A stretch of 64,000 nt of DNA from NCBI GenBank assembly GCA_963281255.1, contig OY725502.1:3596001-3660000 (forward strand). The letters run 5' to 3'. Position 1 is the first letter of the stretch. Each line of letters begins with the position of its first letter. Origin of the DNA: Aphrocallistes beatrix (lineage: Eukaryota > Porifera > Hexactinellida > Sceptrulophora > Aphrocallistidae). This document shows positions 26,046-64,000 of this stretch, in pieces. The position numbers and the translations under genes were made by a program. The notes under the pieces were generated by a model. That model had not been told where the DNA came from. It saw only the letters and a program-made list of their open reading frames with translations, and ran no database searches.

Positions 26046-26142
26046 CCATACGAATTCCAATTCTATAAATGTTTGAAACTCGTCCACCTATACAATCTAC
26101 AATTGAAAGTTATTCGAACTGGGGAAGAACCAGTTCAAATGC

Positions 26143-39908: not shown

Positions 39909-39915
39909 TATAAAA
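39909..39915 (+). promoter_or_regulatory. TATA box of WH1 gene A
   Basis: TATAAAA lies 40 bases upstream of the ATG at 39949, implying a very short leader. Confidence 0.55.
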
Positions 39916-39948
39916 CCAGAAATAGCATTTCTACCCATTAGTCTTACA

Positions 39949-41869: not shown

Positions 41870-42595
41870 CTAGAGTAGACGCTTTCGTATTTGTATTTGT
41901 CTAACTTCAGATAGAGTTTGATAAACACTTTCTTCTATTTCACATGACATCTCATCTTCAGGGAGAGAATTTTTTGAATTTTCAAATCTTTGGTAGCTAT
42001 TGTTGTTCTGTCTTAACTTTTGATAACACCTTTTTATGCATAATTTACCGCGAACAATTGGTGACTTAGGTCTGGTGAGTTTGTTTGTACTGTTTGATGG
42101 TGTATAGGATTTGAGGCTTGTTGAAAGGTTGAAATTTTTCCCGTTTTTCTTCTGATTTTGTTTGATTTGACTGTTTCTAGTCTTCAAATCAAGTTGAGTG
42201 ATTTTGATGTAACTCTTTATATTCGACATTCTGTATTGAAAATGTTGTGCTTCTAAATGGCAAATGAAATTGATGCCCATCATCTGATCTAGCTGTAGAA
42301 TATGGAACTTTTCAGACACCCACATGAAATCCATTGAGTGAGTGAGCTCACTCTCCCACACTACTCGTTGACAGTTCGCGTCGATTAGAGTCAGAATGAA
42401 GGCGTTGAGATGGAAATCATGCGTTAGACAGAGCGGACCAATGCCCAACAAACCCCATTCATTTGCCGAGTTAGAAACAACATAGAGTTGTACATACACC
42501 GTACAAATTGATATTCTATCTCCACCTAACATGCTATTTACCAATTCGTTGTCTTTCTTGCTGAGGATATGACTTGAATTCACTTGAAGGTTCAT
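41870..42595 (-). CDS. WH1 (EVH1)-domain protein B, inverted paralogue of A
   Basis: A 241-residue single-exon protein with the same layout: WH1 domain at about 18-130 (MLGGDRISICTVYVQLYVV, WGLLGIGPLCLTHDF, RVVWESELTHSMDFMWVSEK), then a basic tail with KRCYQKLRQ and VYQTLSEV. The DNA at 42241-42445 is almost identical to gene A, while the flanks and tails diverge strongly. A recognised role is lacking. As for A, binding to proline-rich ligands of WIP type is the family expectation. The start is the ATG at 42593-42595. Confidence 0.65.
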   Translation of the reverse strand: MNLQVNSSHILSKKDNELVNSMLGGDRISICTVYVQLYVVSNSANEWGLLGIGPLCLTHDFHLNAFILTLIDANCQRVVWESELTHSMDFMWVSEKFHILQLDQMMGINFICHLEAQHFQYRMSNIKSYIKITQLDLKTRNSQIKQNQKKNGKNFNLSTSLKSYTPSNSTNKLTRPKSPIVRGKLCIKRCYQKLRQNNNSYQRFENSKNSLPEDEMSCEIEESVYQTLSEVRQIQIRKRLL

Positions 42596-42640
42596 TTTTT
42601 AAATTTAATACTCAACTTGTTACAATCATGAAATTTAAGC

Positions 42641-42647: not shown

Positions 42648-43776
42648 TACTTGTATGTATTAAGATTCTCCATGCATCATGGTGTAGGCAGTATAGACTT
42701 ATTGTTGCAACTAGAGCACCTGTGGCAGATTTAGCACAAATGAACGACCACCGTATCATGAACTTTAATCTGTATACTTCTTTTCTAAAGAATTTAATAA
42801 ATATGGTTGCCTATGGAATGGTTATTCACTATTTTCAACTTCAAAGTAGTTCCTTATAGCCACTAAATGTGGAATCCTACTGCTATATTGAGTGCTAATA
42901 TCTTCAAATGGAACAATATTTGTATGACTAAAATTGTAATTTGAAAGGATGCGAATACACTGAATCTGTCCACGTATTTTCCTAATTGAAGTTATATGTC
43001 TCTACACATGATCCTTTATATTACAGCACTGACTTCAAAAAGTTGCAAAAAATATATTCTACCTGACATAACTACTTAAATTGCTTCTGATTCCTTGAAA
43101 TATGTCCACGATGTTATGAGTAGTATTTATCACTAATTTTTCATGAGAACGACACGTTTACATCAAACAATCCTCATGACTTTAAAGCTCCAGTAATGTC
43201 TACTTGCAAGTAGTCAATGTTCAATTAGAAAGTAATTGAGTTCATCATGGACATGAACCTAGTTACGTTCATCATGGTTACAATGCACGCCTGTGGGGGT
43301 TAGTACATTATCTGAGACACATGGAGTCATTACATGGTATTGTGACTGAGCAAATCTAGCTCAAATTTGTCAGATATGTTTTTTTCATCTCCTACAGTTC
43401 ATTATAGTATACTTGCAATTCGATATTTTGGTAATTGTACAATAGTAGACTGTTCCCCGTAATTTACTATGCATAATTCAAGTACAGAGAAAGCAGTAAA
43501 CTTCCTTACTTGTGGTGTACCACCGTAGTTATACTCAGTGAATATACTTACGTTTGTGTTAGATGGCAATTCTATGTTATAAACTAGAACTTTTAATTAA
43601 AGATAATTTTAAAAGTTTGTAAAATTTGCCTCGCCCATCTGTTCAAGTGAGCAATCTCACTTTGTGTCCAATATACTCACAAAAAATACATTGCATTTTA
43701 AACCATTTCTTTTCAGTAACTAAAAAATAGATATTTTCATCTTTATTTGGTGTTAAATCTATTACATCAGTACCAT
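42648..43776. other. Spacer upstream of the Rieske gene
   Basis: No gene or known repeat. An AG at about 43769-43770 just before the Rieske ATG could be the acceptor of a 5' UTR intron. Confidence 0.4.
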
Positions 43777-44724
43777 ATGGCCAGTAGCTATGGATCAGAT
43801 GCTACAGAAGGCTTCAGACAAGTAGCTACAGCTGACAAATTAGAGAAATTGCTCAAATCGAAAAACAAGATCAAGTTTGTTGTTGATGGCAGACAGTTAT
43901 TGCTTATAAGGGACAAAGGACATTACTTCTGTCTGGATGAGTATTGTTATCATGCAGGAGGACCATTGTCACTTGGTTTGTTGCATGTGATAGTAGGTGG
44001 CATACATTAAAACGAGGAATATATATACTATTCGAGATATCATTCTTAGCCGTTAAAAGGTGTGAAAATATGCACGCATATATATATATATGCATTGAAA
44101 ACACGTATAATATTTAAAGATAAAACAAAATCTATGTCAAATTTAGTAGAAATTGAACTGTTAGATTCTACAGGAACCCGCGAATGGACAGCTTATGTTA
44201 CAGGAAAAGTATCACTTTAGTTCCTTTGATGATGGTTTGGGTTTTTTCTATTTGTAGTAAATACCCCGAATTTTTATGGTTTCCCCGCCCAAAATGGCTT
44301 AAACAGGAAATGACGCGACACATTCCAGGGGAAACGGAGGGTATTAAAGTTCGGAAGAAATAATAAGACTTAATATTGAGTCAATATATCTAAATACTTA
44401 TGCATAATGTTGATACTATGTATAGGAGATATAGAAGATTTCAATGGCTCAAGATGCATAACATGTCCATGGCATCACAACAGAATTTCCCTGGGCACTG
44501 GAGAGCATTTATACACAGGGATAGATCCGTTTACAAAGCAAACCAGAAGCGAGAGAAGACAATACAAGCAACGTACACATGATGTGATAGTAAATAGTGA
44601 AGGAGTGTTTGTGAAATTATCTACCAGCTGTACAACTCAGAAATATGAGAGTGATCACTACTACGAAGAAGAAACACAGAGAATAATCAAACCTGAATTA
44701 GAGGACGACTTTATAGGTTTATGA
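43777..44724 (+). CDS. RFESD: Rieske [2Fe-2S] domain protein, RFESD-like, two exons
   Basis: Exons 43777-43975 and 44426-44724 join in phase 1 (CTT G / GA GAT ATA), giving 165 residues. The split falls inside the Rieske fold: exon 1 ends CLDEYCYHAGGPLSLG and exon 2 starts DIEDFNGSRCITCPWHHNRI. The two ligand pairs, C-Y-H and C-P-W-H, are intact. The spacing and the G-D-I-E-D phrase match the animal RFESD family, a small soluble Rieske protein of unknown substrate; oxidoreductase or electron-carrier activity is the family expectation. The donor is GTTTGT, less common but workable. The intron carries a family G repeat. ATG 43777 is the first Met before the domain. Confidence 0.85.
44239..44347. 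repeat. Family G repeat in the Rieske gene intron
   Basis: Nearly identical to 35743-35895 (CTATTTGTAGTAAATACCCC, ATGGCTTAAACAGG, AGGGGAAACGGAGGG). Confidence 0.65.
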
Positions 44725-45317: not shown

Positions 45318-48300
45318 CTACACATCAAACTGTTTAACACATTTCGAAGGCGAAATATTTCGCAACTCATCGTTAATTTCCAACAAACTTTGTTCCAATC
45401 GATTAAATCTTGCATCCATATTATCCTGAAGAGATTTCGTAACTTCCTTAAACTTGCTCTCATCTTCATTCGCTTTAGATGAATTTCCAATTCTCTCCAT
45501 GTAAGAATCGAAATATTCTTTCCATACATCAATCGGGATTATGATGCTCTGAACCAATGTTCGTCTATTCGGACCTCGAAAGGCAAACAAAATGTTTGAT
45601 TCATACTCCAATGCGAGATCTGCTTTGAAATCCAAAAAGTTTTTCGTTGAATTGATATCTGAATAAGTTTGAGAAAGTTGTGCAATGAATACGTTGAGGA
45701 GGATCACAATGATGCTGAACGCGAAAATGAGGTAAACAATTGAGAATAGAAACGACACATCACGAAGACTTCCCTCGTAGTTGGAAGGTCCACCATCTAT
45801 CGTGAACAGAATCCCAGAAATCAGTGGAGTGGTGATTGGTGAAAACGGAATTGAATCGTCATTGAACCAACCAGAAAATGAACAGCTACCCTTATCACAT
45901 TGAGAAGATGTGTATGTTCGAGCTACTTGTTGGATGCTACCTGTATATCCGATCAATATAATCAAAATGACCAAAGCAAACCTTGGTACATCTCTGGAAA
46001 CAACATTCGAAAGCGTCTCGATATAAATTCCAAGCGATGGAATCATTTTAGTGTATTTGAAGAATTTTAATGTAAATACTGTGAATGTGAGAGCTTGAAT
46101 TTCCCAATGGGTTCCAACCACGAAATCAGATTTGGAGAAATACAACACTGTTCGAAAGACGTAAAGAAAGAAGAGAAGAAGAATTCCGCTCAGATCGATC
46201 ATGTTGTATGTATCGGAGAAGTGACGGTAGATGGCACGTAGCAAAAATCGAGGGAAAAATTTGAAATAATCGCTGCAATACAACCTGTACAACCTCTCCT
46301 TAAAAACAGTGAGAATTCCGAAAAATATTAGTTTCACCTTTTTCAGCAGTTTCCTGATATTACTGTCTGATTCTTCACCATAATACTGGACATAATGACG
46401 TCTCTGATAACGAAGGTCGTTAGTGGTGTAGTTCAAAGATTCGAGGTAACGATATTTACCAAATATTTCCAGCACCTCAATCATCATGTAAACCCAAGTG
46501 AAAATCAAGATATACATTTCGAAGACGAAACGAGCATAATCTCCTGGTGTATTATATAGGAATAGTTCGTAGTCACAACGAGAAGATGCTAAGGAGAGTG
46601 CGATGACTAAGGGAATATAAAAGGAAAATAGGTAGAGTAAGAAGAGCTTCAAAAACCACCATTTGTAGATAGTCAGTTTCTCATCAATAAGAAATTTTAC
46701 TATTGGATGGTACTTGAACTTGATCTCGTTCGATTTGTACAATTTATGCCATAATGGATCAAGAAGGAAGTTGAAATAGGCAAAGTTGGGATAAGCACCC
46801 TCTTCATTCGAGTCCATTAATTTTGTAGAAAGCTGAACATTTTGTGAGTCTTGAATTACGGTTTTATCGAGGACTTTTTCAAAGTTGTGAAAGTCTTTCC
46901 CTCTAACCATCCTGTGCACTACGTCAGGACAAGCTTCAAAATACTCACAATCGCAATGCTCAATGAAGAGATCCACCATTTCTTGCAAGCCTCGTTTACG
47001 AGCCAGGTCTATAGGACTTTCTCCTCGGACATTTCTGTCGTTCATTATACGTGTGAATAGATAGACGTCATACTTGTAGATGCGTGGGACGATATACCTC
47101 GCCGTTTTGATGGATCTGTGTTTGGCTAGGTAATGCATGACATTATTCTCATCGGGATCACAGGCATCCAAAGAGTCAAGGAGATATTCATACTTGGATG
47201 TGGTGAGTAGTCTGAACAATTGGATCCTATCCAGACTTGCTGCCAGCATTACTGGGTTGATGCCATCTAAATCATGATAGAACAATGCTTCCATGAATGA
47301 TAGATTCAACTCTTCGTATTCTAATCGGTTTTCTTCCGATTCTCTCTCAAGTTTTCGCTCAATTGCTTCATCTCGTTTGGAGGCCTCGTCTAGAAAGAAC
47401 TTTAACACATCGTAATCATCTCTGTACTGAACCGCGTAGTGTAAGACACGTTTTCCGTCTCTGTCAGATGCAGTTAAGGCAATGTTGTTTCGTAGTAGCA
47501 GTGCGATGCGTGACACGCTACTCTGTTTTGCCGCATAATGAATGACGGTACAGTCAGCTGAACTGATCCGTCTCTCCACGTTGATCTTTTTCTTATCGAA
47601 GATCTCCTGAATATCACGGTTGTCGATTTTGTCGTAAGTCAGAAGGTCGAGATATTTGTTTATTTTAGCTCCTTTTTTGACGAAACGTAGTGCCAGATGG
47701 ATGTGGTCTTTCTGCATTGCAATTTCCACTGGGGTACCCTTGGCACTATTCAACTGAATGTCTGCACCATAATCCAATAACAAATCAACGATCTGCTCAT
47801 TACCAATCTCAGCTGCGACATGGAGTGGGGTCAGATCGTCCGTATCGCGACACGACAGAATGCTTTGGTTGCCTACTTCGTGTCGCTCCTCGATCTCTCT
47901 GATACTTTCAAGGATGCATTCGACTAACTCAGTCTTTTCAGTATAAACTGCAAAGTGAATCAAGAGTCCACTCCTCCCGTCTCCCATGCTCACTTCGTGA
48001 TAGTGGTTCCAAGCACGAAGCATTGCTTTCAAATTCTTTTTCTTTTTCGGGATACTAATCGGCATTAATTTGTTCTTATTCTCTCGAACCAGTTCTCTCA
48101 AATACTCCAATCGTCGATCAGCAAGTTGATGCTCTTTGGCTTTCTTGATTAGATGGTGCATCATTATTTCAATAGATCTATCATCATCGTTTAGGGCCGC
48201 AATGTGTAAAGCAGTGTTACGTTCGCGATTCGAAATTCCCAGAGGAACACCTACATCCATAAGGGATTTGGTCATGAAGTTCTTTTCTTTCTTTCGTACT

Positions 48301-51300
48301 GAAATATGCAAGGGAGTCTCGACATCATTGTTCCTCACGCGTAGAACAGTCTTTTCTTCATCTTGTTGTCGCACAGCATTGAGGACGACGGAAATACTTT
48401 CCATGTCTGACTCATCCCAATCATTTACAATTGCCGTATGTACAATAGTGTTACCCGTTCTCGGATCAATATCTTTGACGCTCGCTTTGTTTATAATCAG
48501 AAACTTTACAATTTCATTTTGACACGCCATGATGGCTATTTGGAGGACAGTGCGGCCATTATGGTTCTTGATGCTCAACAAAGTGCTCAGCTTATTCTTG
48601 AGTGTTTCGTTTTTGAGAATTGATTCAATGACAAGCTTCATTCCTTCAAATTTTGAGCTTTTGCTCTTGTCTTTTTCTAGTAAGAGTACATGGAGAATTG
48701 AATTGCCATCATTATTCCGTTCAGTCAAATTAGCACCACGATTGATTAAAGCAATGAAAAATTCGAATTTCCTCAAAGTTATGATTATTTGCAGAGCACT
48801 TTGATCTTTGTTATTCGTAAAATTGATTATTTTTCTCGCTAATTTCTCCTTTTTGCCCTTCTCGAATTCTTCTGTTTTCCTCAGCAGGTATTTCAGAGTT
48901 TTAATATTTGCAATGCTGTTTTTTGCGGCATAGTGTATCAAAGTATTTCCATTATTAGTATCCTGTGATTCATAGTCAAAGTCGGGCTCCAAATCTTCAC
49001 ATACATATCTCATGACAGCTTTTGATCCATTTTGTGCTGCAACATAGATCAGTTTTGTTTCAGGTGCATGTTCCTCGGTAATGGTTTTCTCCTTTAAAAT
49101 CTTTTGGATAAGTTCAGGACATTTTGTAGCGACAATGTTTTTGACCATTGTTTCTAAGTCTCCTGAATCGGGACCACATGGAAGAATATCTCTTTGATAG
49201 TTTTCGTCATTCATTAATTCAGTTTCTTCAAAGTTTGGGAGTGTAGAAACTAAATATTTACTGTCCACTTTGTAAATGATGACGTAAGCTTTGAGATGAG
49301 CAACAGTTTCAATTTCTTTCCATCCAAACTTTAATTTTGTATTTAAAACATCGTCCCCAGAAAGTCCAACAGTATAAACATCTGAACCAAATTCTTTCTC
49401 TACGGCTATTTTCGCACCTTCAGCAATTAACATTTCAACCAATTGTTCATTGTCATTTCTTATAGCTAGATGTAATGATGTCTGGTACTTTTTGTCCAGT
49501 GTGTTGATTAATGATTGGAATTCTTCCTTATTTTTCAAACATTCTAAAACATCTTGGAAAAATGCTGTATTTGTTGAGTATTTGTCAATTGCATGATGTA
49601 GAACGGTACATTGATTCACATCATCTCGACAGTGGAGTGATGGATTATAGCTTAATAATTCCCTGAATATCAATATCTGGGAATTTTCCTGTCCGATAGC
49701 CATTATGAGGGCTGTTCTTCCAGCTTTATCTTGTAAATTTAACAACAGCTGTCCGACGCGATTCAAAGGATGGTTTCTCAGTGGTTCTTTGACTAATTGA
49801 CTCACTACATATCCAAGGATTTTGCTGTTGTTAGTCATGACTGCGTGATGCAGAATCGAGCATAGATCATTGTCTCTACACAGGAGATAGTCATGTTCAG
49901 GATCTACCTTATCTCCACGCTCGAATATGAGATTCAATATCTTGATTGCAACTGCTTCATTATGTGCGTCTATTTCGAATTGAGTTTCTTTCGAAATTGC
50001 GAGGTGTAGAGGAGTTCTACCTTTTTTACAACGCTGATTCAATATTTTCTTATTTCGATATTCGCATCTCTCTTCCGTGTTAAACAGTATATTTATTATG
50101 TCAATTGTCTCTTCTGCGTCAAAAAGAGTTGCATAATGAAGTGGAGTGTATCCTTCTGGATTCCTTATGTAGAGTTGTTTGTCATGACAATTCTCCAGAA
50201 GAATCGAGACTACATCTGTGTAGTGTAGTTTTATTGCGAGGTGCATTGGATAGTTTCCTTTGAGATCTGTTACGTTTGCTATTCCACCCTTCAGAGAATT
50301 CTCTTTTTCATATTTCAATACGAAATCTACCATTTCTTTTCTGGCTTCCTGGTTGTCTAGTTTGCTAGCATGATGGAGTATTGTGTAACCATTCTCCTCA
50401 TCTTTTGAATAGAAATCTGCTTTAGCTTTTAAGAGAGTGTTGGCAATAGCCCTGCTTCTTTTGTTAATAGCTAAATGAAGTGCATTTAAACCTTGCTTGT
50501 TTTTAGCTTTAAGGAAGTTGGCGAGTATTTCCGGATCTATTTTAGCATTGACTAGCATAATCACTAACAATTCGTTTCCTTTCTCCACTGCGAGATGTAA
50601 GGCTGTGTTTCCATGGCCATCAACGAGTGAGATATCAGGATTGAATCGCAATAACCCTTTTAGTAGATCGCTCTGTCCACTCCGTACAATCTGATGAAGA
50701 ACAGAATCACCGTTACTATTCTTCCAATCAATAAAATGCATTTCGTGAATGCTTGTAAGATTGTCGTCAATGCTACTAACCTTTTTCAGAATAGCTTCTA
50801 GAAAGGTGTGTTTTCTGTCTGTTAAGCTAATGATATGAAGAAGAGTATTCTGCTTTGCTCCATACAAGTAATTGAAACGAACCTGTCCACAAGCATCTAA
50901 ATTGTGATTCAACAGGATGTGTAGAGCTTGGAGGACATCTGATTCTATGCATCGCTTTAGAGATTTCCCGAGACAATATGAAATCAGTTGATCTTGAGTA
51001 GGTTCTTTGCCTTCAATAGGTAGAGACTGCTTCTTAATCTGAGGTAGTGATTTGACTAGTTTCCTCAAAACATTATGGTTGGCATTAGTGATTGAAGATT
51101 CAATCATTGAACGCTGATTTCCCTTGCTCTTGAATAGATAGTTTGGATTTAGTTGGACATAATACATTGTTGTTTCTTCTGTACCTTTTTCTGCTATGTA
51201 TTCACTGATGTGCATTCCATTGGATAGAGTCATGTCGTGTTTAATTAGTTCTTGTCGAAAAGCAACAAATAATGGTGTAATGCAACGGCACTGGATTAGT

Positions 51301-51613
51301 TTAGTCAATCCCTGAAGATCACTTTCTTCTATTGATTCTTTTGAAAGTTTTGCAATATTTTCAATTACCTTTGGCCCTGAAAGATCAGGCAATTCTGTTC
51401 CTATCCATTTCAATTCTGGTCCCTCAAATCCTGCGTAGAGAGAATTTTTAGAACTTTTTATGTCAAAAAATAGTTGGAGTGGTAGTTTCTTATTTTCCCT
51501 TATTATCAATTCGTTTTCTTCAATCTGGAATAGATTCACGCCGTAATTTATAAGATGGTGAATAATCTGCATTCTTTTCTCTTTGATTGCATTTTGCAAT
51601 GGAGGAAGTTGGG
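45318..51613 (-). CDS. Giant ankyrin-TRP channel, 3' terminal exon (ankyrins, two linkers, channel)
   Basis: About 2,098 codons. The open frame extends to 51701 but only to a TTG. I place the acceptor at 51614 (ATGAAG/CC), which fits the phase-1 donor at 52903 and gives the join KY-A-QLPPLQNAI, aligning with GLPPLQFAI and GFPPLQYAI upstream. Linker cores lie at 51407 (LKWIGTELPDL) and 49256 (KYLVSTLPNF). Between and after them are many ankyrin repeats (NTALHLAVEKGNELLVIMLV, DLTPLHVAAEIGNEQIVDLL). KYHPIVKFLIDEKLTIY leads into six helices (about 46680-45690), pore LISGILFTIDGGPSNYEG and S6 end LLNVFIAQLSQTYSDI. A short coiled-coil tail follows. The channel part is a paralogue of 12402-16193. 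Expected role: plasma-membrane cation channel with a huge cytoplasmic ankyrin spring. An independent start at the inner ATG (51670-51672, MNQGDQ) cannot be excluded. Confidence 0.75.
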
Positions 51614-51726
51614 CTTCATTTAGGATTGAAAACTGGTGCTGGAACTTTTCAGTCTGGTCACCCTGATTCATTGTTATAAGTAAGCTAAGGTTGGAATACA
51701 ATTATTATTTATTTTTTCATCTAGTA

Positions 51727-52240
51727 CAGTTGAAACCTGGTTTTTCTTAATATTTCAGAATATTTATGGTTTAAAAAATTCCAAATCTATATTAATTTTC
51801 ATCGGTTTTTTCTTACTGTTTGAACCTGTAAAGCAGGCCCGGATTAAGGGGCATTTGGGCTGGAGGCAATTAATAAAATTGGGGCTCCTTGAGTAATAGC
51901 ATTCAAATGAAATATGTAGTATACTCAGTAGAAACGAATATAGTCAAGTAAGCAGTCATCGGTGACTGTAGTGATGCCAAAATTATTATTCTTCAAATTT
52001 TAGGTATTTCTATTTACAACAAATTTTCACAATAATGTGTATAATGTCTTTGTTACGTGATATTATATAAATATATATTGTTTCAAGTAGCCCATAAAAA
52101 ATTTCCCATAACTCAGGACGATCAATGATGCCAGTTTTCAGGGCCGGTAAAAATCGGGGGCCGGAGGCAACTGCCTCCATTGCCTCATGGATAATCCGGG
52201 CCTGCTGTAAAGTAATAGTAAAAAAACCCGGTTTCGACTG
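51727..52240. repeat. CAGTTGAAACC-end pogo-like element, split by another insertion
   Basis: It starts CAGTTGAAACCTGGTTTTTC and ends AACCCGGTTTCGACTG with TA on both sides. Its interior is interrupted by the hAT-like element 51834-52204. It lies in the intron 51614-52903 of the giant gene. Confidence 0.75.
51834..52204. repeat. hAT-like MITE with 8-bp target duplication
   Basis: 371 bases with ends CAGGCCCGGATTA and TAATCCGGGCCTG. Directly repeated CTGTAAAG flanks it (51826-51833 and 52205-52212). An 8-base duplication is the hallmark of hAT transposition. There is no transposase inside, so it is non-autonomous. Confidence 0.85.
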
Positions 52241-52903
52241 TAATATGAATGTATTGAGAAAATGAGTACCGCTACTAATTTTGACTAAGTAATTTAATGC
52301 TTGTCACGAGTGACATGGCTATACCACCAGGGTTGCAGTGCTGTGGGAATGGAATTTTCATTTCCCACATAATATTCATTGATATTCTCATAAAATTCCA
52401 AAATATTCACATAAATAAATTATAATGTGTATATTATTCAGGGTTCTACAAACACTATTTTGGGTCAATAGTATCCAATGGTAGATTCCAAAAGTTAAGT
52501 TAAAATATACATTCTAATGGAGATACCCATGGGGCCTATGGGACACTCACGCGGGGAAAATTGTCATTTTATTTCCTTGTGGTGAGGCATTTGTATGCAT
52601 AAAGGTTGCGCAGCGATGACAGTTATGACCTCGGGAAACTCTTAGGCCATTATGATATTCTTTCCAAGATAGTAAAAGTATATCAACATGAGCTATGGAA
52701 AATAACAATTTAAAACACATATATTGTTGAGAAATGTACAATAATAAAAGAAAATAGATATGTAGTTCAAAAATAGTTCACATGAGAAAAGCAATGTTCA
52801 AGGGTAAGAATAAAACATAAAAAATATCAACAAGGGTTCAAAAATGGAGATAGAAAAACTGTTTTTTAAAGTTCTAAATAAGGGAAAAATAACAATTACT
52901 TAC

Positions 52904-55900
52904 CATACTTTTCTATCTTAAAACAATCTAATATATTGGGATATCTCGTTCCCAATTCTTCAGTCAGCGACTTGATGAAAAAGACATCAGCATACGATCT
53001 TCCCGCTTCATGAGTTAGAATATTACCAATTTCATCAGGAATGTTAAGACAGGATCCGGTTTTCAAAATTTCCTTAAACGCATATTGATAGTTGTGTTCT
53101 ATGGCATAATGCATCGCAGTTCTTTTACGTTTATCTTGGAAACACAACAGATGTTCTCCTTCGCAATAAGCCTTATATCCGTGTTTTCCTTGTTGTTCAA
53201 TTTCCACGAGTACGCTATCAAATATCTCATTATTCAACTGAGATTCCAACGGAATGCCCGAAATGGTAGTGGGACAGGGTAGTGATGGTATGATAGTGAG
53301 ATGGAGAGGTGACTGTCCTTTGTTATCTCGAATTTGCAACGCTGTAGGATCTGCAGAAAGTAGAGAGTCTACAGCATCAGGGTATTGCTTTGAAACGGCG
53401 AGATGTAGTGGAGATTTCAATTCACGATCTTGAATACAAGTAATATTAAATCCTTTACTTGCATTATGAAAGATTAGTTGTTCCATAATGAGTTCTCTTT
53501 GGGTGAGATTTTCAATAACAACAGCTAAATGCAGAACTGTGGATCCATGGCTATTCTGAAAATCAAAGGGAGGCTCACATTCTAAAATAAATTTAACTAT
53601 TCCATCATTTGCATTCTTCACAGCAAGGTGAAGTGCAGTGTTACCAACATTGTTCTCAGCAGATAATAACTCAATACATGGACCATGTTGATATATTGCA
53701 TCGACAAATTCCAAACTGTTGCTATTAACCGCGTAATGGAGTGAGGTTTCTTCATTTTCGTCCACCAATAACGTTCCTGGGTTAAACTGTAGAAGAACTT
53801 CCAAAGTGCTGAGTTGTTTCCTTTCAATACAACAATGCAATGCAGTCTTCCTCTCAAAGTTGCAATGATTGATAATCTGCTTGTCCTTGTATAGAGGATT
53901 TGATGTCTCAATTTCACGTATGACTTCAAGAACTTCCTTAATGAAATTGCTTGATTTATTGTCCATTATCATCTGATGTATCAGTGTATTATCATCGGTA
54001 TAAGTGCAGTCTATTTTGGGGTAAAAATAAAGAAGAGAAATTAGTGCTTTTGAAGACTCGTTAGAAATACTTAACAGTAACGAATTCTTGAGACATGAGC
54101 AGATTTGAGTAGATTCTTCTGAGAGAGCTATACCAGCTATACCAGCATAATCATTTGGTGGATGGGATTTGGAATTTGAGTTTGGTTGATATGTATCGAT
54201 GGATTTAAGCAAAAATTCTAAAACATCAATATTTGGATTTCTAACGGCAGATTCCACCATTGAGAGATGATTATCTTTCCCTTCTATGAGAGTAGAATGG
54301 TTTTTCTCTAAAATATATTTGATTGATCGCAAGGTTCCTTTCTGAGCGATGATTTCAGTTATTTCAAATCCATCTTCAAGTTTAGTATCAAACTTGAGTT
54401 TTTCATTCCGAAATGCAGCATCAAGAGGTTCAGGAGAACTACATTCTGCTATTTTTCCTAACAAATCTTTATTAAGTTTTTTTACAATGTTTGGTTTAGA
54501 CTTGTAGACTTGTATCGTTGTTTCTAATTTTGGTAATTCAGAGAGTACCCATACATCAGATTTTGTGTATTCATAGGTGTATCCAACCCAGTATTTAAGA
54601 TGTCCATATTTATATTCGACAATTTCTAGAGAGAATCCTTCTATCATATCACATAGTGTTTCACCATTATCTGTAGAGAATGCAAGTTTGATGCCAACTT
54701 TTGTTAGTTCATCAACAGATTCGAACATTTTGTGCTTGATTGCAAATTGTAGTGGTGGAAGGCCAGTTTTGTTTCGAGAATAAAAATGCGTGAAACTACT
54801 ATCTGATAACTTTGGGATCAAAATTTTTAAAATTTCCGGTTTAATCACAGCATCATGCAAAATTGAATTTCCATCTCCATCAATTGTCTCCAAATAAGGA
54901 TTAATTTCTAGAATCTTCACTAGAGCATCAGGATTATCGAATGTTATACATAGATGCAGTGGAGTGTGACCTTCTGAATCTTGTGAGTTGATGATACTCT
55001 CCCTAGTTGGTAGATGTTCAATTTTCAAGACTGTATCCAGTATGGATTGGAATATTTCTTTGTTTAAGGATAATACTGCGAGATGGAGTGGTGTTTGTTT
55101 TAAGTTATTGGCTAATTTGACAGCTAATGGGAATTCTAATAATCTCGTAACTATCTCATAATTAGATTTCTTTATAGCGAGGTTTAATGGAGTGTTACCA
55201 TCACTATCTTTCATTGAAAAAAGCTTTTGAGAAAATGCTTTATTTTCAAAATCGATGAGCAAATTAATGATCATCAAATTCTCTTCTACATTTTCGATAG
55301 CATGATGTAAAACTGTACTGTTAAACATATCTTGACAATAAATATCTGCATTAGAGTTAAGCAAGAGTTTGGTTATGTTAAAATCTCCGTTATCAACGGA
55401 GAGATGAAGCGGTGTACACTTCTGTTTGTTTGGAGTATTTACTATCTCTTCGTTTTGCTCCATGCCTAAATTTAAGATAGATTCAACTATTTTAAAGTCT
55501 TTTAACAAAATGGATGAATGCAATGGTGTATTTCCATCAGAGTTTTGAATTAGAATATATGGACCAAAGCTCAAGATTGCTTTAATGGTATTTTCTTGCT
55601 TGGTTTGTAATGCTAGGTGGAGTGCAGTCTCTTTCTGTGCATTCTGTGCATCGATAAAACGAATTGTTCCAGAATCTGCAGGGAGTTTCTCAATTTCACT
55701 TATTCGCGTTAGAAAAGATTTTATAAATTCACATGGTTTATGCTGAATAACCATCAAATGTAAAAGTGTGTTTTCACCATCATAAGTATGGTCATATCTA
55801 GCGTTGAACTCGAGTAGCAAATCTAGAGCTTTTATGTTGTTGTTGTTTAAACTTAATCTGAGTGCACTCTTCAAGCAGAGAGCTATTTTGAATTGATCAA

Positions 55901-58900
55901 TAACTTCTTGTGCAGCATCTGATCGAGGAGGTGAAAGGGATTGATTGGAGTTCTGAGGGAGTCTTTCCAAAAGGAATCGCAAAACTGATAAATCTGAATT
56001 AGCAACTGTATATTCTATCAAGGATTGTTCTTTGGTACAGTCAAAAATAATACATTTGTACAAATCAATATATAATGCAATGACTTCTTTGGTAGAATAT
56101 TGTCCAACATATTTGAGAAGTGTGTATCCTCGGCTAAATTTTAGATTTTGATTTATTAGTCCTGAACTCACTGCTGACTTGAAAGGATCAGTTGAGTGAG
56201 ATTGCAATAAAACTTTTAAAAGATCGGTGTTCAACATATTTGGTTCAATTTCTACCATTGAACTTTTACTATTGAAATGTAAAGTTATAAACTTCTCAGG
56301 AGAGATCACAGGGAGGTTAGTAGCAATCCAGTTAATCTTTGAAGACACTGAAGACACAACACGAAAACCGATCCAATACTCACTGGGAAGATCTTTCGAT
56401 GACTTTGGTGTTTTATATAAGATTCGTAGAGGAAGTTGACTGTTTGGACTGCAAAGTAGATAATTATTCTCTCGATCTTGATATGGTAATTGGACAGAAC
56501 TTTCGATCAGAATGAGAGCAGCTGGAAGTTTGTTTAGTTCGATTGCATATTGAAGTGGAGGGAATCCTTCTGAGTTACAAGGATATAAGTGAGATTGAAA
56601 ATCTTCAGGAAAGTGAGTTTTGAATGCCTCAAGCACTGCTTTTAAGTAGTCACACTTTTCTCCAGATACTTTCACTGCATAATGAAGCAGTGTATCTTGT
56701 AATTTGTCGGTAGTTTCCAAGCAATATTTAGATAATGAGAGTAACTTTTCGAGTGCGCACAAATTCTTACTTTCAATACTCAGATGAACAGGTGTCTTGC
56801 CATCTATATCTTGTTTACAAATTATTTTGTCAATCGATGAATCATCTGAAGTTTCGAATTCTTGTTTTATATGTTCAATAATTTTGTCAAAACTTTCTCG
56901 ATTTTGTGAAAAAACTGCCATGTGTAATGGTGTTCGATTATTATTTCCTGGAATTAGTACTATCGAGGGATCAGCTGATAGTAGAATATCAAAAGTATCA
57001 CTCTGCTGTTTCAACACAGCTTGATGAAGAGGTGTGTTATTATTGTGATCTTTAAGCAAAGTTATCTCATGCTTGTCCAGTTTTAGAAATTCTTTTTCAT
57101 GTTTGAGCAACGTTTCGATGATCGTTTTTCTAAAACTGGGATTGTCTGTCATTTGCATGGCTCGATGCAATAGAGTTTCATTCGTCTTTTCATCTCTGAC
57201 ATAAAACTTGACATTTGAATCAAGGAGACTCTTTGTAATAGCTGCGTTTGAGTGAGAAACTGAAAGTTGAACTGGAGTTAACCCTTCGGTATTTCGAGCT
57301 TCCAAATATTTCTCAGGTTCAGAACACGCTTTAATCACTTCGAGTAGAGCTTTCATGAAATTAATACTCTTGTATCTCACAGAATGATGAAGCACTGTAT
57401 CAACTAATTCGTTTTGGATTGAAAGGTCAGGGTTGAATTTGAGCAACACTTTCATGATATCAAATCTATTCTTGGAGATAGCAAGATGTAAAGCAGTCTT
57501 CCCAGCGCGATCTGGAAAATTGATAAAACTAAACTCACCAAATTTAGATTTAATCTTAATTTGCAAGTCTTTTGCAACATTTAAAATTAATTCTGCGTAT
57601 TGAAAATCTTTTCCTGTCATTCTAAGGGTAACATAGTGCAATAATATTCCTTTATAATTGCCGTATAAATATGACAAACATTCTTTATGTCTTAAGAGAG
57701 TCTCTAAAGCAATTGATTTTTCTTTATTTATACTCTTTTCAACAGATGACATTAAGCATTTAGAGATCGCAGCCTGCTGATTTTCATTTTTCTCTTGGAA
57801 ATTTGTGAGAGCTGTCAAAAGTAATTGAAGAGTATCAGTATTAGAGTTAAGAACGGCACATTCAATAAGAGAAGGACCTTTGTCAATAGGTTCGAATACA
57901 GTTATGTTATATATTTCAAGTATATATTCCATTACTTGTGGAGAAGCAAATTCTGCTGAAAATTGAACAAACCTTGAACCATCCACGATTTTACCCGTTA
58001 CTGCTATTTCTTTCTGTCTTATGAGAGATGATAGCGGTTCATGACTTTTACATTTTACTAGCACTTCTAGAAAGGATACATTGTCAAATTTTCTCAAAGG
58101 GGTCAAATTGCTTGACTCATCAAATACGCTTTCATTAAAATTCGGTAGATCTGTATAGACCCAATAAGTATTTCTATTCTCACTGAGTCGAAAAGAATAT
58201 CCAGTATAATATTTTTGATGAACCCGATCCTCCAAGAACTTTAAGTTAAGACCACTTATGTTATCACAAAGTGTTATTTTTCCAGAGGAGTTCTCGAAAG
58301 ATAATGTTGTATCTGGACTCAACAATCTATCAGATTGTAGATTTTTATGTATGATAGCTAGATGTAGAGGGCGAAGGCCTTGTCGATTTGTTTTCGATAG
58401 AAAATCCTGAGTATTCAATTTTCTCTGTTTGATTTGTTGAAGAATGCTTTCAACAACTGTTGGGGATTCCAGATGCTTTACCGCCTCATGAAGTATAGTG
58501 TCTTCGTTAGAATCTGCCAAGTCTAGGCAAGCATGTGCTTGGAGGAGTTTTCCTATGGCATAGTCGTACTTAGAAGCAATGGAGATATGTAATGCAGTTT
58601 TACCATTAATATCCTGGTGACAAATTAACCGTCCATTCGACTGGTGTGTGTCTAAAGTACAAACTTCAGGTTTAACAATGCTATGAAGAATTTGGTCAAA
58701 TATTTCATTAGAAGGTGGAGTTACTACGGTAGAATCTGATGATGTTGGAACTACAGCTAGATGTAACGGCGTTTGTAGGTCATTATCTTCAAGATCTACT
58801 GCAGTAGGATCTGCTCGTAAAATGGAATCTACTTCAGCCGTATACTGAAGCTTCACTGCTGTATGTAGAGCTGATAAGCCCTCAGCATCTTGACACTTGA

Positions 58901-59129
58901 TAAAATTAACTTTTCTGTCTGAATGTTGATGCAAAATTAATTTAACAATAGCCAAACGATTGTTTTTGTTCTCATTTTTGAGGGAATAATGTAGAGTAGT
59001 TTGTTCAAGAGTATCAGTAGCATGTAGATCTGCACCTTTTTCTAATAATGTACTGAAAATACTTTCGTTGCCAAATTCTGCAGCTAAATGTAATGGAGTA
59101 CACCCATCTTGGTTCTTTCCATGAAGTTC
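52904..59129 (-). CDS. Giant ankyrin-TRP gene, middle segment (ankyrins plus three linkers)
   Basis: Open from 59129 to the donor at 52903/52904 (TATG/GTAAGT), about 2,075 codons with no intron. The TAA a few bases past the donor is therefore intronic. Linker cores stand at 58163 (YWVYTDLPNF), 56330 (NWIATNLPVI) and 54551 (VWVLSELPKL). Each is followed by a C-x-x-x-(E/D)-P-(L/F) helix (CKSHEPL, SHSTDPF, CSSPEPL), an I-E-x-A/T-V-x-N segment and a long ankyrin array (TALHLAISKNRFDIMKVLL, TPLHLSVDNGDFNITKLLL). No ATG is needed at the 5' side because the frame continues, one base shifted, into 59084-64000. The segment is cytoplasmic in the model. No catalytic motif is seen. Confidence 0.72.
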
Positions 59130-62100
59130 TTAGGAAAGCTATTTGAGAAAGAGGACTTTAAATGATCAAATATTATTTTTGCGGTTGACTCGGAACCTAA
59201 CTTTGCTACACAATGAAGAATGTTGTTTTTCGATGCGTCTGATAATGTTAATTCAGGCTTGTACTCTAACAGTTTCTTCAGTAACTCATCATGTCCATTT
59301 TCAATGCAGATATGTAATGCTGTTTTACCCTCGTTATTTCGATGGTTTATCATTGAAATTCCTTCAATTAGCTGTTCTGGATTATTTGATTGTAGTTCCC
59401 TAATTTTTTCTAAGATACTTGTCAGAAAAGCCACTGGTCTCTTTTTCCGAATTATCATATGAAGTAGAGTGTCATTCTCTTCATACAAATGATTGAAGCG
59501 TGCACCGTATTGGAGAAGTATATTGAGGATATCAGTATTTTTATTGTCAATACTATATTCAAGCGAGTTCTTGATTATTTGTGCCAAAGAATTTTCATTA
59601 ATTGTTTTGTTTAACTCTTGAACCCCAGGATTGGGATGTTTTTCTAAGAATGATGACACAGTTTTTTTATTCTGTGCTTTGGTAGCGTTTTCAAGTGTCT
59701 TGAACATTTTTGGAGATACCATTTCATCTGGATATTCTGTATATAGATAGTCTGAAATTTCTTCACTTATATTTCCACACAACACTTCCCATTGTTTATC
59801 GGCCTCCTCTTTTGAGAAATCTATCCATTTCTTCTCGATCGCATAGATTAATGGTTCAATACAATGGCATGAACAGATCATTTCTAAAGTTCGCTTTGTC
59901 ACACTAGTTATTGTACTAAGATCAGTACTAATGGCCGTAGACTTGAGATCAGGCAATAGAGATGCAATGTGATAAGTAGTCTTGTCATCAACTATATCAT
60001 AGCAAACAAAATAATCATTGTAATCGGTGAACACATTACCTATCGTTTTAAGTCCTAAAGAAGGTGGTCGAGATACTATTTCGAACTTAATGCCTTTCCC
60101 ATTACAAAGTGTTAATTCTCCATTTGGAAGCTGAATAGCTATGTTAGCTCCATGTTTACAAAGTTTCTCAGCAGCTCTATGATTTTGATTCTTTATTGCG
60201 TGATGTAACGACGACAGACCATTGTTATTTATTGCTCTCAAATATGATTTCATTTCATCCGTATATCTTTCCTTTATAATTACTAATAATTTGTCCAAAC
60301 ATTCCAAATCATTAGCAATTTCAACCGCTTTATGTAAACAAGAATTCCCATCATCATCTGTCAAATGTAGAAGCGGGGAATATTTGAGTATTTCGTTAAG
60401 AGCTTCAATGTTCTCTGTTTCAACAGCTAAAATAATCGCTGTTTTGCTTTGATTATTTTTTAAGTTGATTAGTTCATTTTCATTAGAAGCACTTAATGAT
60501 TTATTTTCTTTTTGGAATGTTTTTAGGATGTTATGGAGTATTGAGTTATTATAATGCATTAATGCTAGATGGAGAATTGTATTACCCTCCAAATCTCTTT
60601 TGTTATAATCGGGATCAGACTGTAGTAGAACAATTAGAGCTTTTAAATTTGAACACGCAATTGCTGAATGGAGTGGTGTATATCCTTTGCGATCTTGATA
60701 GGTAGATAGAGTTTGATTCGGTTCAGGATTATTTGATTCATGTTTGAGTAGATATTTGACCATTTTCTCCGATTTTAAGAAGTCACTGATTAGAACAGCA
60801 TAATGCAGAACTGTCCTACTCTCATCATCAACCGCATAAAGTTTTGAATTATTGCAAAGAAGTAGTTGTACAATTTCAAGATTGGCAATTTCTACAGCAA
60901 TGTGAAGTGGTGTTTGTTTCTTCTTGTTTGTTTTGTTGATAATCTCAGTTATTCCACTGTTTTTGAATGCATTAACAATCTCTTCAGTACAGTTGAAATT
61001 ATCAGAATTTACAGACAAGTGTAGAGCAGTGTTACCAGAAGAATCTTCCTTAATCGGAGAAGGATTGAGCTGTAATATTGTACCGATACAATCTGGATAT
61101 TTGGATGCACATAAATGTAATGGCGTTTCTCCTGAATCTCGTATTTGACAATCCACAAGAAGAGTGTTGTTGATGTATGTTGATTTAGGTTTCTTGTTCT
61201 CTCGATCTTGAATAACAGTCGCTAATATATCGAGGAATTGTTTCCGAGTCTCAGTCACTCTTACATTTTCTAGAATATAATGGAACAATGTATTTCCTTT
61301 AGGATTTTTCATCTCTAAAGATAAGCAGAATTCTGGCTGTAGGAAATATTGAAAGGTTTCTAGTCTCGATAATTTGACACACAATTCTAATGCACAAAAA
61401 TCACATCCTTGTTTTCTACTCAGGATTTTGTCAATTCTTTCCAAGTGATGTTTTTCTACCACTGTATCGCAGAGCACTTTTACTATCTCTATGTTAGGAT
61501 TACGGATAGCTTCATAGAGTATGTTACCATGATTGAGATCCATAAGTTCCTGCGGAGAAAAATATTTTTTAATCAGGAATTGAATCACTGGAAGAGATCC
61601 AAATTGAGCTGCTGGAATAAATAGTGATGACTTCTGACGTTGAAGCGAATATTTTGAAAATTTTACTTGTTCAAGTAGTGTTCGAAGAGGTTGAACTAAC
61701 TGGCAACTTACGATTTCCTGAACTAAATGATCATTCAAATCTTTAGGGACTTTAATTGTTCTATCTGAGGTATATTTTGTAATTTTCAAATCGCTTAATG
61801 GTGATAGAATCCAACTTAAATTGCTCGTAGTAACAAATGGAAAATGATATCCTACATGATAAGAGTGCTGGTATTCGCATATGGTCAGAGGTAGCTCTCC
61901 AATTGTTTCATGAAGTGCTGGCCCATCAACAGTTCTGTAAAATAAATTAACTTTTTCGTTAACCAATGTTTTACAAGCTTCATAATTCTGGTTACAAATT
62001 GCATGATGTAGCGGAGTGAAATAGTTTTTATTAGGTTTTTCTAATAGTTTAGATAAGTTAGTTGAAGATTTTCTGGCATGTTCGAGGATGAGTTTCAGAA

Positions 62101-64000
62101 TGTCCACTGTGCCAGGAGATTTTGAAGCTACATGAAGATAAGTGTTCCCTTCTATATCCTCAGATTCCAATGGTAAATCCAATTTCAAAATCTCTTCAGT
62201 CGCTTCTTTATCATTCTTTTCAATTGAATAATGGAGAACTGTCCTTTGCAGTTTCGTCTCTTCAAAGTTTACGATTTTCTTCGAGTTTTTGTCAGATTTA
62301 ATAGCATTAAGTAGCATGTTAAACGTCATCTTGTCATATGAAATAACAGCATTATGTAGCAAAGATAATCCTTGAGAATCTGTTGCTAACAAATCAGGTT
62401 TGTATTGTAGGAGAATATTAACTATGTCCACTTTGTGGTTAATGGTGGCTAGCATTAGTGGAGTTCTGCCATCTTTGTCTCTAATCTCCAAGAGAGATCT
62501 GTCAGTGAGCAGTTCATAGATTAATTGTTTTAAAACTGACAAATCAATTGGTCCGCAAAGAACAGCTAGATGTAGCAATGAGTGTCCTGTCTCGCTATCA
62601 CACGAAGATAAACCATGTTTTTTACCATATAGTTTAATAATTTCAATTTGGCCACTAATTATTGCACATTGGATCGGTGAATATCCTTCTAAATTTCGTT
62701 GATGCAAAAATTTTAAGTGATCATTTTCTTTTATGATGTACTGGTCTACAAAATCAAGGATACATTGGAATACATCTTCTTTTCCTAATTCTGCGGCAAT
62801 ATGGAGAATGGAATTTCCTTTATGATTAACAGAACAAATAGATGCATGATCCTTAAGCAGAGATTTTACAAACTTAAAATAGTTCGAATGAACAGCTAAC
62901 ATTAGAGCAGTGCAACCATCACTTTTATTCTGTAAGTCAAGCAATTTGGAATAATGTGCATGGTTATGATGCTTTTTGAGAATGTTGATTATACAATCTA
63001 TTACTATAGGATGCTGATGAAGTGTTGCAGCAGTGTGTAGCAGGGAATTTCCTTTAGAGTCTAGCGTCAATAAATGTGTAAAATGAGTAATCTTACCCAG
63101 TAAATCTATTACAATAGAATTACAACTTTTAACACTGTAATGTAGGAGAGTATTCAAATCATTATCTGTGACTTCCCAAATTTTGACTTTAGAAGGTTTG
63201 CTACATTGCGAACATTGATTAGGATCAAGATCGATATTTAGAAGTTTTTCAAGTTTTTTAAGTTCTTCTTCCTCCTGACAGAATTTAATTAAATAATGAA
63301 AGTAGCAATGTTTCCCCTCGTTAAGGTTGGCTGCACCTGCTTCTAATAACTTCTCTGTTGCTAAGTATTGTTTGTTTTTGAGACTTAGCAGTAGAGGTGT
63401 AAGATCCTCAAAATCGCTCGAAGGTAAAGTAACTTTGAGATCAATTAGGTTTTCCTTTTTGTATTTCCTTAAAATGAAATCAAAAATTTCTTCACTGTGA
63501 TAGTTTTTTACCGCAATGTGAAGAATCGACAAACCTTCATCATTAGTCTGTTGGTGGTAGAGCTTGCCTTCATGCTCTTTAGTGAAATAGGTCATTAACA
63601 CTTTTAAAACTTCAATGTTGGAATTTGAAATTGCATTGTTGACATTAATGAACCATTGTTCAAACAGTAACTCATTCTTTCCGTTTTCAAAAATGATTGC
63701 AATTGCACTTGATTGGTGTGAATCAATAGCAAGTTCAAGTGGAGTTAATCCAAACTCATTTTTAGAGGATAGCATAGTACTTAGTGCAGAAGATGTGCAA
63801 TGTTTCATTAAGATTTCTAGATTGTCATTATTTCTCAATTCGATTGCTTTGTGTAATAAATTTTGATGATTGATTGTATTCTCTTCATGAGTTTGGGAAA
63901 TTGTTAACTCTTTGAGAAGTTCACGTAGAACCACTGTATGTCCGTGTTCAACTGCCAAAAATAGTAAATTATCATATTTATCCAGCTGTGTACCCAATAA
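59084..64000 (-). CDS. Giant ankyrin-TRP gene, 5' segment, runs off the window
   Basis: Open from the window edge to TAG 59084-59086, about 1,638 codons. There is no ATG start at the edge, so the gene begins outside. Linker cores lie at 61813 (SWILSPLSDL) and 59974 (TYHIASLLPDL, with Trp replaced by Tyr), followed by CQLVQPL and CHCIEPL helices. A residual copy near 63660 keeps only the NAISNSNIEVLKVLM tail of the module. Ankyrin repeats fill the rest (TPLMLATINHKVDIVNILL, TPLHIAVEIANLEIVQLLL). The similarity to other modules runs past the stop in a different frame: the C-terminus KNFMERTKMGVLHYI is an out-of-frame reading of KNQDGCTPLHLAAEFG. So one base appears to be missing near 59130. Confidence 0.72.
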   Translation of the reverse strand, partial: LLGTQLDKYDNLLFLAVEHGHTVVLRELLKELTISQTHEENTINHQNLLHKAIELRNNDNLEILMKHCTSSALSTMLSSKNEFGLTPLELAIDSHQSSAIAIIFENGKNELLFEQWFINVNNAISNSNIEVLKVLMTYFTKEHEGKLYHQQTNDEGLSILHIAVKNYHSEEIFDFILRKYKKENLIDLKVTLPSSDFEDLTPLLLSLKNKQYLATEKLLEAGAANLNEGKHCYFHYLIKFCQEEEELKKLEKLLNIDLDPNQCSQCSKPSKVKIWEVTDNDLNTLLHYSVKSCNSIVIDLLGKITHFTHLLTLDSKGNSLLHTAATLHQHPIVIDCIINILKKHHNHAHYSKLLDLQNKSDGCTALMLAVHSNYFKFVKSLLKDHASICSVNHKGNSILHIAAELGKEDVFQCILDFVDQYIIKENDHLKFLHQRNLEGYSPIQCAIISGQIEIIKLYGKKHGLSSCDSETGHSLLHLAVLCGPIDLSVLKQLIYELLTDRSLLEIRDKDGRTPLMLATINHKVDIVNILLQYKPDLLATDSQGLSLLHNAVISYDKMTFNMLLNAIKSDKNSKKIVNFEETKLQRTVLHYSIEKNDKEATEEILKLDLPLESEDIEGNTYLHVASKSPGTVDILKLILEHARKSSTNLSKLLEKPNKNYFTPLHHAICNQNYEACKTLVNEKVNLFYRTVDGPALHETIGELPLTICEYQHSYHVGYHFPFVTTSNLSWILSPLSDLKITKYTSDRTIKVPKDLNDHLVQEIVSCQLVQPLRTLLEQVKFSKYSLQRQKSSLFIPAAQFGSLPVIQFLIKKYFSPQELMDLNHGNILYEAIRNPNIEIVKVLCDTVVEKHHLERIDKILSRKQGCDFCALELCVKLSRLETFQYFLQPEFCLSLEMKNPKGNTLFHYILENVRVTETRKQFLDILATVIQDRENKKPKSTYINNTLLVDCQIRDSGETPLHLCASKYPDCIGTILQLNPSPIKEDSSGNTALHLSVNSDNFNCTEEIVNAFKNSGITEIINKTNKKKQTPLHIAVEIANLEIVQLLLCNNSKLYAVDDESRTVLHYAVLISDFLKSEKMVKYLLKHESNNPEPNQTLSTYQDRKGYTPLHSAIACSNLKALIVLLQSDPDYNKRDLEGNTILHLALMHYNNSILHNILKTFQKENKSLSASNENELINLKNNQSKTAIILAVETENIEALNEILKYSPLLHLTDDDGNSCLHKAVEIANDLECLDKLLVIIKERYTDEMKSYLRAINNNGLSSLHHAIKNQNHRAAEKLCKHGANIAIQLPNGELTLCNGKGIKFEIVSRPPSLGLKTIGNVFTDYNDYFVCYDIVDDKTTYHIASLLPDLKSTAISTDLSTITSVTKRTLEMICSCHCIEPLIYAIEKKWIDFSKEEADKQWEVLCGNISEEISDYLYTEYPDEMVSPKMFKTLENATKAQNKKTVSSFLEKHPNPGVQELNKTINENSLAQIIKNSLEYSIDNKNTDILNILLQYGARFNHLYEENDTLLHMIIRKKRPVAFLTSILEKIRELQSNNPEQLIEGISMINHRNNEGKTALHICIENGHDELLKKLLEYKPELTLSDASKNNILHCVAKLGSESTAKIIFDHLKSSFSNSFPKNFMERTKMGVLHYI

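What the first reader, a model, noticed from the sequence alone, without database searches (positions are those of the whole stretch)
49254..61813. A seven-copy non-ankyrin linker module makes a super-repeat of about 605 residues
Cores ending in W-(V/I)-x-(S/T)-x-L-P-x-(L/F) occur at 61813, 59974, 58163, 56330, 54551, 51407 and 49256. Intervals are 613, about 604, 611, 593, 618 (intron removed) and 717 codons. Each core is preceded by a G-x-x-L-C-like start and a (V/I)-G-(Y/F) phrase. Most are followed by C-x-x-x-E-P-L, an A-V-x-N-x-N-I-x-V-L segment and CLKxSL...NTLLHxM before the next ankyrin array. I do not recognise this as a named domain. It may be a joint between ankyrin superhelices or a ligand-binding insert.
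Basis: seen in the sequence. Interest (0 to 1): 0.88.

Follow-up and report, generated by a model that had tools for sequence, protein, structure and literature searches.

The report
Beta module punctuating giant ankyrin channel
A huge animal gene carries seven copies of a small, unnamed module, predicted to be beta-strand rich and spaced about 600 residues apart, in a very long chain of ankyrin repeats that leads, probably in one protein, to a TRP-type ion channel, suggesting an unusually long and jointed channel tether.

Summary
The repeated core is present at all seven coordinates. Leave-one-out profiles of the whole module find 7 of 7 copies (51.5-155 bits; best non-copies, stretches outside the copies in the same ORFs, 19-24 bits). 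The core block alone finds 6 of 7 (49256 missed). The motif as written holds strictly in 3 of 7. The "linker" splits in two. A core of about 75-90 residues has no ankyrin signal (hhalign 1.6%), no Pfam match (6 copies scanned) and no solved relative found by sequence. AlphaFold2 gives it several strands plus a helix, in context (mean pLDDT 84.6) and alone (79.5). More than half of the rest is degenerate ankyrin repeats. The unit of about 605 residues is a tandem duplication: ankyrin repeats match in register (30 of 65 against 14 expected). Best reading: an animal TRP channel with a very long ankyrin tether punctuated by a new small domain. The join across a supposed 1.2-kb intron, a frame slip near 59110 and the missing 5' end leave the full-length protein unproved. 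Function is inferred. No eukaryotic proteome could be searched.

The parts
61697..61957 (-). beta module copy 1 (core at 61813)
59861..60154 (-). beta module copy 2 (core at 59974)
58044..58316 (-). beta module copy 3 (core at 58163)
56193..56501 (-). beta module copy 4 (core at 56330)
54435..54698 (-). beta module copy 5 (core at 54551); the copy modelled
51282..51545 (-). beta module copy 6 (core at 51407)
49119..49421 (-). beta module copy 7, degenerate (core at 49256)
   Evidence: missed by core-only profile, found by whole-module profile
59084..64000 (-). ORF P0001, ankyrin arrays and copies 1-2; open at the window edge, so the 5' end of the gene is missing
52896..59129 (-). ORF P0002, ankyrin arrays and copies 3-5; overlaps P0001 in another frame (frame slip about 59084-59129)
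51685..52908 (-). supposed intron (one possible pair of splice sites, not established); holds an inverted-repeat element
   Evidence: read; flanks match complementary parts of the module profile
45318..51701 (-). ORF P0003, copies 6-7, ankyrin arrays, TRP-type channel and C-terminal tail; possible independent start ATG at 51671
45612..46724 (-). TRP-type channel domain (P0003 residues about 1660-2030)

Best explanation
The feature is a small strand-rich domain (about 75-90 residues; four or more strands, then a helix) inserted in the ankyrin solenoid where, after a finger-like hairpin, an ankyrin helix pair would be expected. It sits once in each tandemly duplicated super-repeat of about 605 residues (an estimated 14 ankyrin-type helix pairs plus one module). 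The super-repeats form the cytoplasmic N-terminal arm of an animal TRP-type cation channel whose pore domain is encoded in the same exon as copies 6 and 7. Most likely mechanism (inferred): the ankyrin arm is a long elastic tether or gating lever, as proposed for TRP-N, and the beta modules are regularly spaced joints that also dock a partner (cytoskeleton, or the same module on a neighbouring subunit), so that pull or rearrangement of the arm is passed to the pore. Shown by computation: repeats, module, channel homology. Predicted: the module's fold. Inferred: one polypeptide, tether function, docking.
For: Whole-module leave-one-out 7 of 7, 51.5-155 bits against 19-24 for non-copies; core leave-one-out 6 of 7. 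Core without ankyrin signal, four later blocks with it (hhalign 1.6% against 88-98%, unchanged or nearly so when overlapping reference pairs are removed). Strand-rich prediction in context and alone. In-register duplication 30 of 65 against 14.0 expected, 0 of 1000 permutations. Channel: PDB phmmer 7e-9 to a TRP-like channel and 4.8e-8 to TRPV2, two-paralogue profile 6.6e-12 to TRPV2, NCBIfam trp model with best stretch at P0003 1790-2019, 31% identity, 9e-52, to an Ank+Ion_trans neighbour. Continuity across the supposed intron: end of P0002 matches profile positions 6-78, start of P0003 76-142.
Against: A frame slip separates copies 2 and 3. The strongest-looking donor (GTAAGT at 52903) is not in phase with the best-looking acceptor by my reading; an in-frame stop (52896-52898), an AATAAA at 52573 and an ATG at 51671 allow two genes. 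Core-only signal is weak for the inner core and absent for copy 7. Sheet topology was not seen: the tool returns only strands and confidence. Pfam Ion_trans was not found in the giant's last 560 residues at E 10, and the NCBIfam trp score, partly due to ankyrins, is far below cut-off. No functional data.
Confidence: 0.55

Rival explanations
1. Two neighbouring genes: a giant ankyrin-only protein (copies 1-5, ending at 52896) and a TRP channel of about 2117 residues (copies 6-7) starting at the ATG at 51671. The module is then a part shared by related ankyrin proteins, not joints of one 5800-residue channel.
For: In-frame stop, AATAAA at 52573, possible start ATG; the strong donor is out of phase and the in-phase donor (GTATGG) looks weak (my reading).
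Against: The two sides match complementary, barely overlapping parts of the module profile (6-78 and 76-142), expected if an intron or recent insertion interrupts one unit. This is weakened by ankyrin repeats being alike everywhere.
Confidence: 0.3
2. The core is only a degenerate ankyrin repeat pair, and the beta fold is a modelling artefact of a six- or seven-sequence alignment.
For: More than half of the linker is degenerate ankyrin; the inner core is supported by few clear sequence matches.
Against: hhalign of the core against the protein's own canonical ankyrin pairs gives 1.6% (inner part 0.1%) while four later blocks give 88-98%; two AF2 runs on overlapping input give the same main strands.
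Confidence: 0.08
3. The module is a diverged member of a known small-barrel class (SH3-like: PWWP, Tudor) and acts as a peptide-docking domain.
For: PWWP, R67 DHFR and extended Tudor are among the 50 Foldseek rows shown, of 120; that these share SH3-like barrels is recalled.
Against: No hit is significant (best E 1.4, probability 0.47-0.51); unrelated folds are in the same list; no Pfam or PDB sequence match.
Confidence: 0.25
4. The locus is a decaying pseudogene: frame slip, insertion between exons, degenerate copy 7.
For: Frame slip at about 59110.
Against: About 17.5 kb is otherwise open in three long ORFs; channel residues are shared with the paralogue. A one-base sequencing error would explain the slip.
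Confidence: 0.12

Closest known systems
TRP-N / NOMPC
   Same: Long N-terminal ankyrin array before a TRP pore; the array is proposed as gating spring (PMC4494053, abstract and passages).
   Different: TRP-N has about 28 ankyrin domains, called there the highest of all TRPs and near-fixed in number; that they run without interrupting modules is recalled. Here more repeats, seven modules and a 605-residue super-repeat; the pore's solved relatives found are TRPV types and a TRP-like channel, not NOMPC.
TRPA
   Same: Ankyrin arm plus TRP pore.
   Different: [quoted passage not shown] TRPA1 is not among the hits of the pore domain (E up to 1, up to 1e-4).
TRPV2 and the TRP-like channel of 6pw4
   Same: Best sequence matches, mainly over the later transmembrane part and pore.
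   Different: Short N-terminal arms (recalled).
Tankyrase ankyrin repeat clusters (recalled; 5jhq appears)
   Same: Ankyrin clusters separated by recurring linkers in one protein.
   Different: Clusters of about 5 repeats; linkers are not beta domains (recalled).
SH3-like small barrels (PWWP, Tudor, R67 DHFR)
   Same: Weak fold resemblance of the core.
   Different: No significant score; no sequence match.

Membership tests
TRP channel superfamily | sequence homology over the later transmembrane part and pore | tested here: met
   best stretch of the trp model 1790-2019
TRP channel superfamily | six transmembrane helices | tested here: inconclusive
   hydropathy shows five clear regions in the channel part; S4 assumed
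TRP channel superfamily | curated profile cut-offs (Pfam Ion_trans, NCBIfam TIGR00870) | tested here: not met
   giant: no Ion_trans at E 10 in the last 560 residues, TIGR00870 93.5 bits against 498.75 and also hitting the ankyrin-only ORFs; the paralogue passes Ion_trans (28.0 against 25)
TRP-N | about 28 ankyrin domains | tested here: not met
   52 repeats over three ORFs by a narrow profile, part of them its own seeds; 12 of these in P0003, so the count depends on one gene or two
TRP-N | pore closest to NOMPC | tested here: not met
   pore hits in PDB are TRPV types and a TRP-like channel; no tree was made
Ankyrin repeat (core module) | ankyrin profile match | tested here: not met
   hhalign 1.6%, inner 0.1%
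Ankyrin repeat (later phrases of the linker) | ankyrin profile match and helix pairs | tested here: met
   four of five later blocks 88-98%, the first, which holds CxxxEPL, only 7.9%; helix pairs
SH3-like barrel | significant structural match | tested here: inconclusive
   best E 1.4, probability about 0.5

The most novel reading that the evidence does not exclude
A single TRP channel polypeptide of more than 5800 residues, with an estimated 100 or more ankyrin-type repeats built from tandem 605-residue super-repeats, each jointed by one copy of an undescribed beta domain: a new architecture of channel tether and a new domain family.
Probability: 0.35. Interest if true: 0.85.

Novelty: new variant of a known kind. 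Interest (0 to 1): 0.66.

Why it matters
Ankyrin arms of TRP channels are candidates for molecular gating springs, and a 2015 survey calls the roughly 28 repeats of TRP-N the highest among TRP proteins and enough for one helical turn (PMC4494053, passages). An arm several times longer, built of repeated jointed units, would let the spring idea be tested by unit number, and the regularly spaced module offers a defined place to look for the anchor. If split into two genes, it is still a small unnamed domain tied to ankyrin giants, and the second gene is still a TRP-type channel carrying two copies.

Tried and rejected
Whole-linker-is-novel: rejected, as the later blocks are mostly degenerate ankyrins. 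A named domain for the core: none in Pfam with 6 of the 7 copies each scanned alone at E 10 (copy 7 was scanned only within its ORF at E 0.01), none in PDB sequences (best E 0.69, proteasome alpha-1, judged chance), none significant in the PDB or viral structure libraries. The NCBIfam effector names that hit the ORFs (AnkX, AnkY and others) lie far below cut-off and I take them as ankyrin matches; rejected. Relatives elsewhere: none confirmed for module 5 in IMG/VR or GTDB contigs (these scans reach close relatives only) or phages; none for the channel in IMG/VR; 5 plasmid records match P0003 within residues 260-1069, four annotated as ankyrin proteins and one hypothetical. Foldseek of the whole module lists mostly ankyrin-repeat proteins by title (50 of 1121 rows shown), with TM-scores to the query of 0.20-0.37. 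Rfam at gathering scores and tRNA scans were empty. Copy 7 was left out of the isolated-core model because it is degenerate and spoiled the alignment.

Literature: seven searches listed no paper that I recognised as describing a TRP channel with more than about 29 ankyrins or this module; I saw listings with the start of abstracts only, plus passages of PMC4494053. This is not proof of absence.
Full report
WHAT IS THERE. The stretch is the minus-strand coding sequence of an animal-type gene in three long open frames: P0001 (59084-64000, open at the window edge), P0002 (52896-59129) and P0003 (45318-51701). P0001 and P0002 overlap in different frames by 46 bases, a frame slip near 59110. P0002 and P0003 are separated by about 1.2 kb read as an intron. 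Pfam finds ankyrin models throughout; the only other matches at E 0.01 (Ank_KRIT1, EAD11, PUS7L_N) are below their curated cut-offs. No genome is held for this window, so the organism is unidentified; the neighbouring genes (thioredoxin-glutathione reductase fusion, DcpS, kelch with cytochrome b561, LRR with EGF) fit an animal (inference).

THE OBSERVATION. All seven cores lie at the given bases. The motif as written holds strictly in 3 of 7. Leave-one-out tests against all window frames show more than chance: the core block recovers 6 of 7 held-out copies with E from 4e-12 to 4e-5 while the best non-copies score 0.067 to 1.4; copy 7 (49256) is missed, E 35. With only the inner core, copies 3 and 5 alone are clear, so much of the core-block signal lies at its edges. 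With a module profile of about 270 residues, which includes ankyrin-like flanks, all seven are recovered across the core: 83.3, 81.6, 127.2, 122.2, 155.0, 121.8 and 51.5 bits for copies 1-7, against 19.2-24.0 bits for the best non-copy in each test. With the core profile of all seven, the best hit in any other reading frame of the window was E 0.27.

WHAT THE LINKER IS. Profile-profile comparison with 17 canonical ankyrin pairs of the same protein gives 98.5% for the block before the core, 1.6% for the core, 0.1% for its inner part, 7.9% for the block just after it, and 95.2, 87.8, 98.2 and 98.5% for the four following blocks. Removing reference pairs that overlap the block tested changes only the last value, to 97.6%. 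AlphaFold2 on copy 5 with the seven-copy alignment gives mean pLDDT 84.6 and pTM 0.80: helix pairs, then strands at 103-105, 108-110, 121-127, 129-140, 143-150 and 157-161, then helix pairs to the end, with low-confidence stretches at 269-287 and 408-411. The 88-residue core alone, with six copies, keeps strands 25-31, 33-44, 47-54 and 61-65 and helix 77-84, mean pLDDT 79.5, pTM 0.67, block means 85-92 from residue 21 to 80 and about 50 before that. The tool gives no coordinates, so that the strands form one compact antiparallel sheet is inferred from their order and the confidence. The first strands sit where an ankyrin finger hairpin would be, so the module appears inserted where a helix pair should start (inference). 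The phrases CxxxEPL, AVxNxNIxVL, CLKxSL and NTLLHxM lie in or beside the helix pairs; CxxxEPL is in the block with only 7.9%.

IS IT A KNOWN DOMAIN? No Pfam match for any of the 6 copies scanned alone. PDB sequences: with the module profile, none of the best stretches in the 60 rows shown (of 519) covers the inner core, though two, 9jxq (to position 127) and 6sku (to 121), run into its first strands; the core profile's best is E 0.69. Foldseek: best E 1.4 in PDB, with PWWP, R67 DHFR and extended Tudor among the hits, beside unrelated folds; best 0.79 in viral models. An SH3-like barrel is a lead, not a result.

THE SUPER-REPEAT. Among units 1, 3, 4, 5 and 6 the global alignment score is above the mean of rotated controls in 10 of 10 pairs and above the best rotation in 8; U4-U6 ties (482) and U3-U6 loses (395 against 401). 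Unit 7 beats the best rotation in 2 of 6 pairs, and the stretch before copy 1, which was not cut at a core, in 3 of 6. Independent of the core, canonical ankyrin repeats of one unit find their best match at the same distance from the core in another unit in 30 of 65 cases, 14.0 expected, and 0 of 1000 permutations reach that; the cases are not independent of each other (units 1, 3, 4, 5 and 6 only). So the unit grew by tandem duplication. The core profile reports no copy in the roughly 680 residues before copy 1. From 9 helix pairs in about 335 non-core residues I estimate about 14 per unit and 100 or more in all; a narrow profile recognises 52 at 5 bits or more in the three ORFs, some of them its own seeds, against a mean of 0.05 in 20 shuffles.

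THE CHANNEL. The last part of P0003 matches a TRP-like channel (6pw4, 7e-9) and TRPV2 (4.8e-8) and, as a profile with its neighbour, TRPV2 at 6.6e-12. The NCBIfam trp model has its best stretch at residues 1790-2019; its total (93.5 bits) is far below cut-off and the model also hits the ankyrin ORFs P0001 and P0002. Pfam Ion_trans is not found even at E 10. A neighbouring ORF, 12402-16229, has ankyrins plus Ion_trans (1.5e-6) and is 31% identical over the channel (9e-52), including a DGG near the pore. Hydropathy shows five clear regions in the channel part; S4 is assumed. The pore-containing exon itself carries copies 6 and 7, so the link of module and channel does not depend on the intron. 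Whether copies 1-5 belong to the same protein does.

ONE GENE OR TWO? For one gene: the end of P0002 matches positions 6-78 and the start of P0003 positions 76-142 of a profile made from the other copies, as if one unit had been cut; ankyrin repeats are alike, which weakens this. For two: an in-frame stop at 52896-52898, AATAAA at 52573 and an ATG at 51671. By my reading the good donor GTAAGT at 52903 is out of phase with the best-looking acceptor (AG at 51685), and the in-phase donor GTATGG at 52908 looks weak. The gap also holds an inverted-repeat element (about 51830-52210). I give one gene about 0.6.

MECHANISM. Inferred from TRP-N, whose array of about 28 ankyrins is proposed as gating spring (PMC4494053, abstract and passages; the paper calls that number the highest among TRPs). 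Here each unit would be about half a helical turn and the module a joint or docking point. No step of this is shown.

VERDICT. A genuine repeated module, probably a new small domain family, in a TRP-linked ankyrin giant; new variant of a known kind. Main gaps: no eukaryotic proteome search, no transcript, no experimental structure.

Noticed in passing
12402-16229 (-): A second, ordinary-sized ankyrin plus Ion_trans channel ORF (1275 residues, no stop inside), paralogous to the giant's channel domain.
   Followed up: partly
59084-59129 (-): Frame slip between P0001 and P0002: two frames overlap by 46 bases; sequencing error or real lesion not distinguished.
   Followed up: partly
26149-28131 (-): Glutaredoxin-thioredoxin reductase fusion in one open frame that ends Gly-Cys-TGA-Ser-TAG, which looks like a selenocysteine codon; no SECIS family among the 12 Rfam matches listed for 25300-26300.
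   Followed up: partly
39886-40719 (+) and 41870-42598 (-): Two similar ORFs on opposite strands that look like WH1/EVH1 proteins (name recalled, not tested).
   Followed up: no
43720-44724 (+): Two-piece ORF resembling a Rieske-domain protein (recalled, not tested).
   Followed up: no
51830-52210: The supposed intron holds what reads like a small mobile element: ends GCAGGCCCGGATTA and its reverse complement TAATCCGGGCCTGC, with TTTACA on both outer sides (read).
   Followed up: no
25332-25418 (-): Stretch matching Rfam mir-3718 at E 3.3e-7 but well below the gathering score (39.2 against 78).
   Followed up: no
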